From a virus: 64,000 nucleotides of DNA. The stretch lies in IMG/VR virus record IMGVR_UViG_3300044712_001570, positions 24,122 through 88,121 of that record, one strand, 5' to 3'. This document shows, in pieces, positions 15,328 through 22,865 of this stretch (its first letter is position 1; every line of letters starts with the position of its first letter). Both the position numbers and the translations under genes were made by a program. Below the pieces are notes generated by a model. It had not been told where the DNA came from. It did no database searches and was given only the letters and a program-made list of their open reading frames with translations.

Positions 15328-15770
15328 ATCATATCGAAGAAGTAGTCACAGTAAAGGAAGCAACCTCTATTGATAATAACCAACTAAACGAAGAGTTTAT
15401 ACGTTTACCATCCGATCTATCCTACTTCTCTAACCTATATGCAGAAGCATGTGATGCATCTGCAAGGGCTAAGCTTTTGAAGGAGATGGCAGAAGCAGCT
15501 GTAGTACAAGAGCTACGTAGTACTAATGATAAGATAAATGTGGATATGGTTAAAGCTCTTGTTACTTTAGATGAAACAGTAGAAGCAAGTCGGCGCAATC
15601 TTATAACAGCAGAAACAAATGAAGTTCGATTGAAAGGAGTATGTGACGCTATACGAGCTAAGAAGGATATGTTAGTCTCTATTGGTGCAAACATTAGAGC
15701 GGAGTCTGAAGGTAGTCCACTAATAAGACAACAATCCCGTGCAATGCGGGAGAGTGAATCGGATAGGTAG
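15324..15770 (+). CDS. Coiled-coil hypothetical protein
   Basis: This 148-aa protein is almost entirely helical with heptad-like Leu/Ala spacing from about residue 30 to 140. No family is recognised. The start overlaps the lipoprotein stop (ATGA) behind GAGGTT. The last ten bases, including the TAG stop, form the acceptor stem of the tRNA that follows, so gene and tRNA overlap on the same strand. Confidence 0.7.
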   Translation: MNHIEEVVTVKEATSIDNNQLNEEFIRLPSDLSYFSNLYAEACDASARAKLLKEMAEAAVVQELRSTNDKINVDMVKALVTLDETVEASRRNLITAETNEVRLKGVCDAIRAKKDMLVSIGANIRAESEGSPLIRQQSRAMRESESDR

Positions 15771-15837
15771 CCCAATAGGTTAGGGTCCTCGGCTCATAAC
15801 CGAGTTAGTGCGGGTTCGAGTCCCGCCCTATCCACCA
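15761..15837 (+). tRNA. tRNA with CAT anticodon (elongator Met or Ile2)
   Basis: A complete 77-base cloverleaf with encoded CCA can be drawn. The acceptor is GGATAGG/CCTATCC; the D arm is GCCC/GGGT with one G-U pair. The anticodon arm is CTCGG-CTCATAA-CCGAG and the T arm is GCGGG-TTCGAGT-CCCGC. The first pair is G-C and the anticodon stem lacks the GGG/CCC of initiators, so it is not initiator tRNA. CAT could mean methionine or, after lysidine modification, isoleucine AUA. AUA codons are common in these genes, which favours Ile2 as an inference. A CACCC/GGGTG hairpin follows immediately (15836-15851) and may aid 3' processing. Confidence 0.92.
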
Positions 15838-16666: not shown

Positions 16667-16680
16667 CTAGTTTTTTAGCC

Positions 16681-16703
16681 GTCTCCTCTGCTCGAGAGGA
16701 GAC
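16681..16703 (+). other. Perfect 8-bp hairpin after the SSB gene
   Basis: GTCTCCTC (16681-16688) pairs with GAGGAGAC (16696-16703) around a 7-base loop. The T-run lies upstream (16672-16677), not downstream, so it does not look like a terminator on either strand. It may be a processing site or transcript-end stabiliser. Confidence 0.45.
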
Positions 16704-16720
16704 AATGGAAGGAATATAAC

Positions 16721-16834
16721 ATGTACAGAATGTTGAAAGCATTGCACGCTATAATGTATAAACCAACAATAAGTTGGTATACCGTTATAGTGGTATGCGT
16801 AGTTCATGAGTTCATATCATTATATAAAACATAG
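16721..16834 (+). CDS. Possible 37-aa membrane peptide
   Basis: ATG 16721 follows GGAAGGA with about eight bases of spacing. The 37-aa product has a short basic N-terminus and a hydrophobic stretch of about 20 residues (Thr/Val/Ile/Cys, residues 16-34), consistent with one membrane span. Nothing is recognised. It lies in the only long gap of the window, between a hairpin and a tRNA-like RNA. Small size limits confidence. Confidence 0.4.
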   Translation: MYRMLKALHAIMYKPTISWYTVIVVCVVHEFISLYKT

Positions 16835-16860
16835 GTAGTTGGCCGGTGAGAGCCGGCTTA

Positions 16861-16986
16861 GGAGTGGCTTGGTGCACAGATAGTTTGGCTAGCATGAACA
16901 TGACATGGATTCCCCACACGCCCTTCCCCACCCGTGTGGCCTAGCTAAACATCTGATAGAGGGTTCGATTCCTTCTCACTCCACGA
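16861..16986 (+). ncRNA. tRNA-like RNA with one long helix instead of D and anticodon arms
   Basis: GGAGTGG (16861-16867) pairs with TCACTCC (16976-16982) as a 7-bp acceptor stem with A 16983 as discriminator. GAGGG-TTCGATT-CCTTC (16959-16975) is a proper T arm with a consensus T loop. After a 9-base D-loop-like CTTGGTGCA, positions 16877-16892 pair with 16941-16955: 15 bp with a single bulged A. This helix encloses 48 bases with a second hairpin (CCACACG/CGTGTGG, 16914-16939). No cloverleaf D arm or anticodon arm can be drawn. The plan recalls the tRNA-like domain and P2 helix of tmRNA, in miniature. CCA is not encoded (ACGA follows). A GCCGG/CCGGC hairpin precedes it, and a perfect TATAAT at 16751 has no -35 at normal spacing. 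Confidence 0.6.
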
Positions 16987-16995
16987 GGTAAATAC

Positions 16996-17262
16996 ATGGG
17001 TAATCCACTCAAAAGATACGTAAAGGTTGAAGTCCTTGTTAGCGCATCTGGTAAGGGTAAGAAGTGCCACGAATCTTGCCCTTACCTAAACCGAATGATA
17101 GATGAGTTAGAAGGTACTCGTTCAAAGAGTTGTTTATTATTTGATTCACCTTTATCTATATCCGGTAATAATAGTGACATTATGCGTTGTCCAGAATGTG
17201 TACAAGAAGCAGTAATAATAGATGTTAATAGATTAAAAACAGAATCAAAGGAAAAGCCATGA
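16996..17262 (+). CDS. Small Cys-rich hypothetical protein
   Basis: This 88-aa protein is not recognised. Cys/His pairs (CHESC near 22-26, then RCPEC near 72-76) suggest a zinc-binding fold. GAGGT lies about seven bases before the ATG and touches the 3' end of the tRNA-like RNA. It overlaps the Mre11-like gene by ATGA. Confidence 0.65.
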   Translation: MGNPLKRYVKVEVLVSASGKGKKCHESCPYLNRMIDELEGTRSKSCLLFDSPLSISGNNSDIMRCPECVQEAVIIDVNRLKTESKEKP

Positions 17263-18392: not shown

Positions 18393-20050
18393 TAACTGTA
18401 TCGAAGGTGGTCATTGAGAAGTTTATGAATCATAAGAAGACCACTCTTACCTTTCCATCAACAGGTCTAATAGTAATAACAGGGCCTAATGGAGCAGGAA
18501 AGAGTTCCTGCCTGGAAGCTATATCCTTTTGCTTATGGGGAAAGACCCTACGGGGTACAGACCCATGGCCTAGTGATGATGGTGGAAGAATATTGGTACA
18601 GTTAGCTAATGGTATGTGGGTAGAGAGAAACCAGACTAAAAGCATTAAGGGTAGGGTGCTCTTTGCAGGAGGAAGAAACGAAGACCCTATATCCTTTGCT
18701 ACTATGACTAAGGCTCAAGAAACCCTTGATTCAAAGCTATGTAGTTTTGATTGCTGGAGTAAGTCCAGTATCTTTTCCTCTGCAGATGCAGCTACCTATT
18801 CCGATGCTACTGACATGGAGCGAAAGCTTCTCCTGGAGGGTATCATAGGTTTGGATGGTTGCTCCAATGCCCATGAGTTATGTAAGGCAGACCTTAAGAG
18901 TACCAGGCCTCAACTCATGTCTGCCGATAGTAGGGTTGCATTGGTGCAATCTAAGATTGACCTAGCTAATCAACAAGTTAGGGCAGCAAGTACTAGATTA
19001 GAGGAATGTTCGAGAAGTGCACCACAATCTGCAACATTGGAAGCTACTAAGGCCAAACTTGCAAAGCAACAGGAATCTATGCGCAAGTTAGAGCGACAGA
19101 TTGAACATGACACTAACGTTCATTCAGAGATGCAAGCTAGGGTATACAAGGCTCAGTTTCTAGTTAAGAACACTAAAGCTTCTTTAGATGCAGCAACCAA
19201 ACAACAGTGTGAAGCTTGTGGGCAAACCATAGTAACCGATAGTACTAAGATAAAGAACTTACAGGATGCACTTGCTGCTAGTACTTCAGAGCTTGAATCT
19301 CTTCTAGTATTAGAGCAGGAGATTAAAGGTGAGATACCCTATAACAAGGAGCTTCGTGCAGAACTAAAGGTATCGATCGATAAGCTATTGGTTGATTACT
19401 ATAAGCTTTCAGAGTTGGAAGCTGTTAGTTCAAGTGCGAAGGCAGAACACCAAGCTGCACTCGATAGGGCTAATATTCTTCTCTTAGAGAGTCAAGAGGC
19501 CTTAAAGATTGCTCAAGAGGATGTAGAGCGGGTAAAGGCAGAGATAGCCTTGATTGAGTGTGCGGAAAAGGTATTAGGGATAAAGGGGGTACGAGCTACA
19601 ATACTAAGCAATGCCCTGCCTGGTTTGGAGGAGGTAACCAATACATGGCTATCTCAGTTGAACCCAGGTGTAAGTGTTAGGCTAACTCCTACTGAGAAGA
19701 ATGGAGTTATAGAGGCGGTACCATTAGATATTAATGGTGTTAATGGTAAAGGCTATAAGAGCACATCCGGCGGTGAAAGGAGAAGGTTAGATGTAGCCTT
19801 AGTGCTAGGGCTAGCAGAGATGGCTAGTGGTGTAACTATTAGGGATACCAATAGCACTCTATTCTTCGATGAGGTTGCAGACTCCCTAGACAAGGACGGT
19901 CTCATAGCAACTGCTCGAATATTCCATGCATTAGCTACTACAAGGTGCGTTGTATTGATAACCCACAGGGAAGAGTTATTGGACCAGTTGCAACCTAAAG
20001 AGCACTGGAAAGTTATGAACGGCTCTGTAACAGTTGAAAGGAAGTGGTAA
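18389..20050 (+). CDS. Rad50/SbcC-type ATPase subunit (T4 gp46-like)
   Basis: This is a 553-aa SMC-like ATPase. It has Walker A GPNGAGKSS (about 32-40), a coiled coil with zinc-hook CEACG near 275, signature TSGGERRR near 455 and Walker B LFFDEVADSLD near 492. The coiled coil is short compared with bacterial SbcC, as usual in phages. It partners with the Mre11-like protein upstream. AGGAG lies six bases before the ATG. The last codons lie in a 17-bp sequence repeated 572 bases downstream. Confidence 0.92.
   Translation: MITVSKVVIEKFMNHKKTTLTFPSTGLIVITGPNGAGKSSCLEAISFCLWGKTLRGTDPWPSDDGGRILVQLANGMWVERNQTKSIKGRVLFAGGRNEDPISFATMTKAQETLDSKLCSFDCWSKSSIFSSADAATYSDATDMERKLLLEGIIGLDGCSNAHELCKADLKSTRPQLMSADSRVALVQSKIDLANQQVRAASTRLEECSRSAPQSATLEATKAKLAKQQESMRKLERQIEHDTNVHSEMQARVYKAQFLVKNTKASLDAATKQQCEACGQTIVTDSTKIKNLQDALAASTSELESLLVLEQEIKGEIPYNKELRAELKVSIDKLLVDYYKLSELEAVSSSAKAEHQAALDRANILLLESQEALKIAQEDVERVKAEIALIECAEKVLGIKGVRATILSNALPGLEEVTNTWLSQLNPGVSVRLTPTEKNGVIEAVPLDINGVNGKGYKSTSGGERRRLDVALVLGLAEMASGVTIRDTNSTLFFDEVADSLDKDGLIATARIFHALATTRCVVLITHREELLDQLQPKEHWKVMNGSVTVERKW
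20034..20050 (+). repeat. 17-bp direct repeat, copy 1
   Basis: TTGAAAGGAAGTGGTAA forms the end of the Rad50-like gene and also supplies the ribosome binding site of the next gene. An identical copy lies at 20606-20622. Confidence 0.9.
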
Positions 20051-20052
20051 CC

Positions 20053-20583
20053 ATGTTATCCGATATTTTATTGTATGTAGTTGTATTTGGATTAATTATT
20101 GTTGCGTATATATCAGGGAGGAGCTGTGTACGCCCTATAAAGGATGGTTTTGATAAAAGCCATCTATATCAACACGCCAAAGCTGAACTAAAAGACTATA
20201 GTATTGAGTCTAATAACGAGGTGCTTGAGCTTTTGAGGGTATTTTATAACCAAGGCCATTCTGGTTGTTCTGCGTCATTTGTAACGGAACAGTTTTATAA
20301 ACTCGCAAAATTCCAGCCGTTGCGCCCATTAACTGGTGAAGATAGTGAATGGATTGATGTAACTCCTGACCATTTTCAAAATAATCGATGCAGTGGTGTG
20401 TTTAAAAATAAAAAGACAGGCATTGCGTACTTTTTAGATGGTAGGGTGTTCAAAGATAAAACAGGAGCATCCTATACTTGCTCTGCATCGAAAACCCCAA
20501 TTACATTCCCATGTTATCCAAAAACTGAGTATATGGATCGCGAGGCAACAGAAGAGGAAAGAATCGAAGGTTGTAAGCTATAA
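20053..20583 (+). CDS. Membrane-anchored hypothetical protein, 176 aa
   Basis: I start at ATG 20053 (GTG 20044 in frame is less likely). One N-terminal membrane span (about 3-23) is followed by a soluble domain of about 150 aa with Cys residues and a GIAYFLDGRVFKDKTG strand-rich piece. No family is recognised. The gene is bracketed by the 17-bp repeats and looks like an insertion between the Rad50-like gene and the next one. Confidence 0.65.
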   Translation: MLSDILLYVVVFGLIIVAYISGRSCVRPIKDGFDKSHLYQHAKAELKDYSIESNNEVLELLRVFYNQGHSGCSASFVTEQFYKLAKFQPLRPLTGEDSEWIDVTPDHFQNNRCSGVFKNKKTGIAYFLDGRVFKDKTGASYTCSASKTPITFPCYPKTEYMDREATEEERIEGCKL

Positions 20584-22425: not shown

Positions 22426-22865
22426 CGGATAACCTGTGGGTGGTGCTTTCCGTTATGTAATGCAACCAAGAGATAATCCTTGGTTTCTCTTGTTGATCTA
22501 ATATCCCTAGGGTCTACACCTCGTATTCGAGTAGGTGGAGCAGGAGGCTCTGGAGTAATAACATTCACATCATCCATATGGGTATCCCTCCACCCATCCA
22601 TTACCCTATCGGCATAAACATCAGGTGCTATTGAAGGAGCTTCAAAACATCTTTCGGATGCTTCATAGCCTCTTGTATATCCACTTCGATAGCATTCGTT
22701 TGCAAATGAAATAGCCATAGCCTCCCATTCGTCTGCAGAGGCATTCGGATGGGAGGCTCTAAACAACTGGATTATCTTGGCTAATCTAGGGGGTGGTTGT
22801 GGTCCTTCATACCAAACACCAAACAACCACTCTATCCACTTCCGCAAGTGTTTTATGAGTGCCAT
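22422..22865 (-). CDS. Hypothetical protein, 147 aa
   Basis: This is not recognised. It is an alpha-helical N-terminal domain with many Trp/Glu (about 1-80) followed by a Pro-rich segment and a short C-terminal piece (RETKDYLLVALHNGKHHP). It starts eight bases after the end of the large tail protein gene with a weak GGTGA in front. It may be an accessory of the tail/baseplate operon. Confidence 0.65.
   Translation of the reverse strand: MALIKHLRKWIEWLFGVWYEGPQPPPRLAKIIQLFRASHPNASADEWEAMAISFANECYRSGYTRGYEASERCFEAPSIAPDVYADRVMDGWRDTHMDDVNVITPEPPAPPTRIRGVDPRDIRSTRETKDYLLVALHNGKHHPQVIR

What the first reader, a model, noticed from the sequence alone, without database searches (positions are those of the whole stretch)
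16861..16986. tRNA-like RNA with acceptor stem and T arm but a single 15-bp helix, a possible mini-tmRNA-like or decoy RNA
A 7-bp acceptor stem and a consensus T arm are present. The D and anticodon arms are replaced by one 15-bp helix with a bulged A, enclosing 48 bases with an inner 7-bp hairpin. A 9-base D-loop-like segment contains GG, as needed to touch the T loop. The plan matches the tRNA-like end of tmRNA, but there is no tag reading frame, and CCA is not encoded. I know of no described phage RNA with this exact plan. Possible roles are a decoy for tRNA-binding enzymes, a primer or an SmpB-like ligand.
Basis: partly seen in the sequence, partly recalled or inferred. Interest (0 to 1): 0.75.

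Follow-up and report, generated by a model that had tools for sequence, protein, structure and literature searches.

The report
Phage tRNA-like RNA without anticodon
This phage encodes a small RNA that has the top half of a transfer RNA but a long helix where the decoding half should be; it is very probably real, it is not a tmRNA or a hidden tRNA, and its closest known counterpart is the old, still unexplained RNA C of phage T4.

Summary
At 16861-16983 a 7-bp acceptor stem, a 9-nt D-like segment (CTTGGTGCA), a 15-bp helix with a bulged A and a consensus T arm fill the 161-nt gap between two ORFs. ARAGORN and Rfam call neither tRNA nor tmRNA there. The acceptor/T-arm plan arises in about 0.09 of random genomes of this size and composition, and a 15-bp closing helix in 3 of 20,000 shuffles. 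The only copy found is an identical IMG/VR contig. Relatives by capsid (50-66%) lack both the RNA and its replication module, so covariation could not be tested. Defining tmRNA features fail, and the intron reading is no better than chance. The 'no described phage RNA' claim is wrong in kind: T4 RNA C (species 1 RNA, function unknown) has the same plan. I aligned 11 RNA C relatives: 47 pairs, 26 with compensatory changes. It is not detectably homologous to the window RNA. In 1.06 Mb of tRNA-rich phage DNA, 39 acceptor+T-arm structures missed by ARAGORN occur against 1-2 in shuffles, so such RNAs are common. Best explanation: a processed, non-decoding tRNA-like RNA acting through its top half, perhaps as a decoy. 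The structure is well supported; the function is inferred.

The parts
16861..16867 (+). acceptor stem, 5' strand GGAGTGG
   Evidence: 7/7 pairs with 16976-16982
16868..16876 (+). D-loop-like connector CTTGGTGCA with GG; no real D stem (at most 2 bp, GC-TTGGT-GC)
16877..16892 (+). long helix, 5' strand CAGAT-(bulged A16882)-GTTTGGCTAG
   Evidence: 15-bp closing helix in 3 of 20,000 shuffles
16893..16907 (+). weak 4-bp hairpin CATG-AACATGA-CATG at the tip of the long helix
   Evidence: minimum-energy fold only
16894..16944 (+). chance-level 16-codon open frame MNMTWIPHTPFPTRVA* inside the RNA; no Shine-Dalgarno seen; not claimed as a tag
16914..16939 (+). inner hairpin CCACACG-(12 nt)-CGTGTGG
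16941..16955 (+). long helix, 3' strand CTAGCTAAACATCTG
16956..16958 (+). 3-nt variable-region equivalent ATA
16959..16975 (+). T arm GAGGG-TTCGATT-CCTTC
16976..16983 (+). acceptor stem 3' strand TCACTCC plus discriminator A; followed by CGA, no encoded CCA
   Evidence: the real tRNA at 15761 does encode CCA
16841..16858 (+). 7-bp hairpin directly upstream of the RNA (leader)
   Evidence: fold
16985..16988 (+). Shine-Dalgarno GAGG of the downstream ORF, two bases after the discriminator
16996..17262 (+). downstream 88-aa Cys-containing ORF, no PHROG or Pfam match
16721..16834 (+). upstream 37-aa ORF, looks membrane-spanning by eye
15761..15837 (+). ordinary tRNA with CAT anticodon and encoded CCA, about 1 kb upstream

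Best explanation
A phage-encoded, non-decoding tRNA-like RNA of about 123 nt. It is transcribed as part of the replication-gene array. Its acceptor/T-arm half is cut out by the host tRNA-processing enzymes: RNase P at 16861, and RNase Z or a 3' exonuclease at 16983 followed by CCA addition. The long helix replaces the D and anticodon arms, so the product cannot decode. It would therefore act in trans through its top half, by occupying a protein that reads acceptor plus T arm (a tRNA-tail-targeting defence nuclease, a tRNA-maturation enzyme, EF-Tu or SmpB). Shown: the anatomy, its non-chance nature, its place in a non-coding gap, the absence of an anticodon arm. Inferred: transcription, processing, stability and the decoy role. 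The kind is that of T4 RNA C, though not its sequence family.
For: Full acceptor and T arm with consensus T loop in a non-coding gap between close-packed ORFs. Fold z -3.4; closing helix 3 of 20,000 shuffles. No ARAGORN or Rfam tRNA/tmRNA call. The same plan occurs in T4 RNA C with 26 compensated pairs of 47, an RNA shown by Northern blot in infected cells and listed as of unknown function (PMC9697503; PMC3014915). 39 such top-half structures missed by ARAGORN in 1.06 Mb of tRNA-rich phage loci, 1-2 in shuffles, 31 of them within 600 nt of a tRNA; most of those in the 14 loci checked are missed by the Rfam tRNA model too. A Tad3 Thoeris inhibitor (PF25185, E 3.7e-30) lies 3 kb downstream; this is only weakly suggestive of counter-defence.
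Against: No homologue with sequence variation, so no covariation for this RNA itself. No recognisable promoter. No expression data. The RNA C covariance model does not detect it. The decoy target is unknown. The RNA abuts the next gene's ribosome-binding site, which fits a cis role equally well.
Confidence: 0.5

Rival explanations
1. A decayed tRNA: a former tRNA gene whose bottom half was replaced or rearranged, still processed perhaps, but without function.
For: Phage tRNA loci hold many odd tRNA-like structures. ACGA is one base from ACCA. There is a normal tRNA 1 kb away. One example, L177:6922-7062, looks like tRNA debris inside a tRNA.
Against: The acceptor is 7/7 paired and a new 15-bp helix closes the body; neutral decay would break the top half and would not build a helix. 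A phage genome of tightly packed ORFs rarely keeps 123 dead bases (inference).
Confidence: 0.23
2. A cis element: a tRNA-shaped 5' leader or processing site that controls the 88-aa ORF at 16996, either by RNase P/RNase Z cutting next to the ribosome-binding site or by binding a regulatory protein.
For: Shine-Dalgarno GAGG begins two bases after the discriminator and ATG is 13 nt from the RNA's end; no separate promoter or terminator was found next to the RNA.
Against: The ribosome-binding site is unpaired in the centroid fold, so there is no clear sequestration. The 15-bp closed helix is not needed for a processing site. Tight spacing is the rule in this genome.
Confidence: 0.17
3. A minimal tmRNA with the tag frame MNMTWIPHTPFPTRVA in the loop.
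For: Same top-half plan as tmRNA; weak 10.2-bit partial hit to beta_tmRNA over the T arm; an open frame in the loop.
Against: Pair 3-70 is A-U, not G-U; no tmRNA-type D loop; ARAGORN -m finds nothing even with relaxed scoring; Rfam tmRNA gathering scores not reached; a 16-codon frame is expected by chance.
Confidence: 0.04
4. A normal tRNA interrupted by an intron, for example tRNA-His(GTG) with a 41-nt insert.
For: 2 of 1,617 single-segment deletions give an ARAGORN tRNA-His, and ARAGORN with introns and relaxed score gives the same.
Against: 11 of 60 shuffles of the inner part also give hits, 9 of 60 at least two (the printed counts there include one header line each). No G-1, which tRNA-His needs. 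Far too short for a group I intron. Splicing would have to break the 15-bp helix.
Confidence: 0.03
5. Chance fold.
For: Acceptor plus T arm alone is seen in 0.09 of random genomes.
Against: Combined with the closing helix about 1e-5, and it sits exactly in a non-coding gap.
Confidence: 0.03

Closest known systems
T4 RNA C (species 1 RNA, rnaC; AF158101 70908-71046)
   Same: Phage-encoded, 139 nt, in or near phage tRNA genes; acceptor-like stem plus T arm (CCGGG-TTCGAAT-CCCGG); long composite helix instead of D and anticodon arms; no encoded CCA; no anticodon
   Different: No sequence similarity, and the RNA C model does not hit the window RNA. RNA C has an extra 10-bp variable-region hairpin and two U-U mismatches in the acceptor of most members (both positions pair in Yersinia phage fHe-Yen9-01). 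RNA C sits inside a tRNA cluster; this one is alone.
tmRNA tRNA-like domain (RF00023, RF01850 and relatives)
   Same: Acceptor and T arm joined by a shrunken D region to a long helix
   Different: No G3-U70, no tmRNA D loop, no pseudoknots or convincing tag frame, a third of the length, no significant model match
Canonical tRNA (RF00005)
   Same: Acceptor, T arm, discriminator A, GG in the D segment
   Different: No D stem, no anticodon arm, 123 nt, no ARAGORN or Rfam call
Non-canonical tRNA-like structures in phage tRNA clusters
   Same: Perfect acceptor and T arm, odd bottom half, missed by ARAGORN
   Different: Most keep a D arm and several small hairpins; none has the short D segment plus one 15-bp helix; several may be true tRNAs with unusual arms

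Membership tests
tmRNA | G3-U70 wobble for alanylation | tested here: not met
   pair 3-70 is A-U
tmRNA | match to tmRNA covariance models or ARAGORN | tested here: not met
   (10.2 bits against gathering 84)
tmRNA | tag reading frame after a resume codon | tested here: inconclusive
   16-codon ATG frame in the loop, chance-level, no relatives to test
tmRNA | alanylation and SmpB binding | not testable with these tools
   needs biochemistry
canonical tRNA (with or without intron) | D arm and anticodon arm | tested here: not met
   deletion test at chance level
T4 RNA C sequence family | match to a covariance model of 11 RNA C sequences | tested here: not met
   R1: nothing at E<=10 in the genome; unfiltered, only the T arm at 3.7 bits
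phage non-decoding tRNA-like RNA (kind of T4 RNA C) | acceptor stem plus T arm with T loop TTCRANN | tested here: met
phage non-decoding tRNA-like RNA (kind of T4 RNA C) | helical body in place of D and anticodon arms | tested here: met
   for RNA C
phage non-decoding tRNA-like RNA (kind of T4 RNA C) | stable, processed transcript in infected cells | not testable with these tools
   shown for T4 RNA C by others (PMC9697503); no culture or RNA-seq for this phage
phage non-decoding tRNA-like RNA (kind of T4 RNA C) | conserved by compensatory change among relatives | tested here: inconclusive
   only an identical copy found

The most novel reading that the evidence does not exclude
Phages broadly carry non-decoding tRNA-like RNAs (T4 RNA C, this RNA and dozens of ARAGORN-negative elements near phage tRNA genes) that keep a tRNA top half and vary the bottom half, and use them as decoys or inhibitors of enzymes that recognise acceptor and T arm, for example tRNA-tail-cleaving defence nucleases.
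Probability: 0.2. Interest if true: 0.75.

Novelty: new variant of a known kind. Interest (0 to 1): 0.45.

Why it matters
T4 RNA C was sequenced decades ago (own knowledge) and still has no function. Its relatives show a conserved tRNA-like top half on a helical body, and an unrelated phage has the same plan without detectable homology. That makes the shared part, acceptor plus T arm, the likely working part and gives a concrete test: find which tRNA-binding proteins these RNAs hold. It also shows that standard tRNA finders overlook a sizeable set of tRNA-like RNAs in phage genomes.

Tried and rejected
Close DNA or protein relatives: no INPHARED DNA match. SSB and SbcD in IMG/VR gave only the identical contig and one 26% SSB. 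DNA polymerase and DnaB scans were empty, partly because of the peptide patterns chosen. Capsid relatives (23 IMG/VR loci and one Methylocystis MAG contig) lack the RNA and the replication module. T-arm string in 85k bacterial genomes: no match, so no host tRNA donor found. The covariance model of the window RNA mostly hits tops of ordinary tRNAs. The tRNA-with-intron reading and the tmRNA reading were tested and dropped. T4 RNA D shows no T arm. A second T-arm hairpin in the same genome (L006:3462-3499) scores only E 2.3 with the model. Searches of open-access papers found no description of this phage RNA.

Full report
1. Observation. The RNA sits in the gap between a 37-aa ORF ending at 16834 and an 88-aa ORF starting at 16996. 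The last three bases of the reported interval (CGA) belong to the leader and ribosome-binding site of that ORF. In simulated genomes the acceptor plus T-arm plan alone occurs in 0.09 of genomes, and a 15-bp closing helix occurs in 3 of 20,000 shuffles of the inner part, so the whole is not chance.

2. What programs call it. ARAGORN and Rfam at gathering scores find only an ordinary tRNA (CAT) at 15761. At E up to 10 the only related hit is a 10.2-bit fragment of beta_tmRNA over the T arm. ARAGORN's tmRNA mode and its intron modes find nothing at normal scores. Cutting out every possible single segment gives tRNA-His in 2 of 1,617 cases; shuffled bodies do this in 11 of 60 trials (the counts printed there include one header line each), so an interrupted tRNA is not supported. 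tRNA-His would also need an extra G-1 (established knowledge), which is absent. Pair 3-70 is A-U, not the G-U of tmRNA.

3. Relatives. The record is an 88-kb IMG/VR virus contig with a contractile-tail gene set, DNA polymerase A, an SSB, SbcC/SbcD-like genes and a Tad3-like Thoeris inhibitor. The RNA is 100% identical in the one other contig that has it. No named phage has it. Phages with 50-66% identical capsid protein have neither the SSB nor the RNA, and only one has a weak SbcD-like hit. The string GGTTCGATTCCTTCTCACTCC is absent from 85k bacterial genomes. Conservation could therefore not be tested for this RNA.

4. The closest known RNA. T4 RNA C, also called species 1 RNA, is 139 nt and annotated next to the T4 tRNA genes. 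Folding showed a T arm and an acceptor-like stem. I collected relatives from Enterobacter, Salmonella, Yersinia and Escherichia phages and from IMG/VR and aligned 11. RNAalifold gives 47 pairs, 26 with at least one compensatory double change. The structure is an acceptor-like stem with two U-U positions that both become standard pairs in Yersinia phage fHe-Yen9-01, a T arm, a long composite helix in place of the D and anticodon arms, and a variable-region hairpin. For acceptor plus T arm alone, 84.8% of cells pair and the covariation score 0.183 exceeds all 500 shuffles; slid versions reach at most 53% and 0.085. RNA C and RNA D are late T4 RNAs of unknown function, confirmed by Northern blot (PMC9697503; also PMC3014915). 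The window RNA is built on the same plan, but a model of RNA C does not recognise it. It works like RNA C at most; it is not shown to be a member of that sequence family.

5. How common the kind is. In 1.06 Mb of tRNA-rich IMG/VR loci, fetched with a D-region plus T-arm pattern and therefore a biased sample, 39 distinct structures have a 7/7 acceptor and a 5-bp T arm yet no ARAGORN call, against 1-2 in shuffles; 31 lie within 600 nt of a tRNA. In the 14 loci checked against Rfam, the tRNA model accepts six of them (for example L126:2591-2664, L135:6838-6954), which are odd but probably real tRNAs, and misses most of the others (for example L107:4013-4107, L107:4213-4309, L178 three times, L114, L116). 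A few, such as the A+T-rich L126:4570-4671, may be chance.

6. Mechanism. Shown: a tRNA top half on a closed helix, no decoding arm, placed between early genes. Inferred: co-transcription, excision by RNase P and RNase Z or an exonuclease, CCA addition, stability. The part shared with RNA C is acceptor plus T arm, so the likeliest mode of action is binding of a protein that reads this half. I put a processed, trans-acting tRNA-like RNA at about 0.5, a decayed tRNA at 0.23, a cis element of the 88-aa ORF at 0.17, and tmRNA, intron or chance at 0.1 together. Recent work on nucleases that cut tRNA tails (PMC12851939, title and abstract seen) makes a top-half decoy reasonable, but nothing here tests it.

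7. Verdict. The mini-tmRNA idea fails, and the claim that no phage RNA has this plan is corrected by T4 RNA C. Moderately interesting as a second, unrelated example that points to a neglected kind of phage RNA.

Noticed in passing
L190:1409-1547(-) (T4 rnaC) and relatives in L191-L201: T4 RNA C (species 1 RNA) has a conserved tRNA-like top half and helical body, with 26 of 47 pairs compensated in 11 relatives; one record (SonariX, L193:154-248) annotates its 3' part as tRNA-Met.
   Followed up: yes
L070-L189 (e.g. L107:4013-4107, L107:4213-4309, L178:1264-1376, L178:2118-2249, L178:3144-3234, L116:635-763, L154:11-136): 39 acceptor plus T-arm structures missed by ARAGORN in tRNA-rich phage loci, 1-2 expected from shuffles; many are missed by the Rfam tRNA model too.
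   Followed up: partly
L103:4039-4116, L136:1033-1109(-), L107:6478-6565: A small family of tRNA-like RNAs with an anticodon-like loop CTACGAA, a shrunken D arm and a shared segment GA(G)TAAGGTAACTGGA in the variable region.
   Followed up: no
L177:6922-7062: A tRNA-Pro(TGG)-like gene whose anticodon loop carries an insert that looks like the 3' part of another tRNA (GGGTTCAAATCCC..CACCA).
   Followed up: no
L006:3462-3499(-), record position about 22461-22498, outside the window: A second T-arm-like hairpin in the same genome, CTAGGGGG-TTCGAAT-CCCCCTAG, in a short gap between genes; possible acceptor partners pair only 6 of 7; could be a tRNA remnant or attachment-site core.
   Followed up: partly
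L069:10893-10958 (capsid relative G004): A 66-nt tRNA-Arg(ACG)-like structure with a nearly absent D arm; ARAGORN calls it a tRNA, but it overlaps an open frame.
   Followed up: no
window 20044-20583 (+): Tad3-family Thoeris inhibitor (PF25185, E 3.7e-30), an anti-defence gene 3 kb downstream of the RNA.
   Followed up: no
window 16680-16702, 16841-16858 and L006 near 3600: Strong G+C-rich hairpins follow several stop codons without a T run; possibly mRNA 3'-end or processing signals.
   Followed up: no
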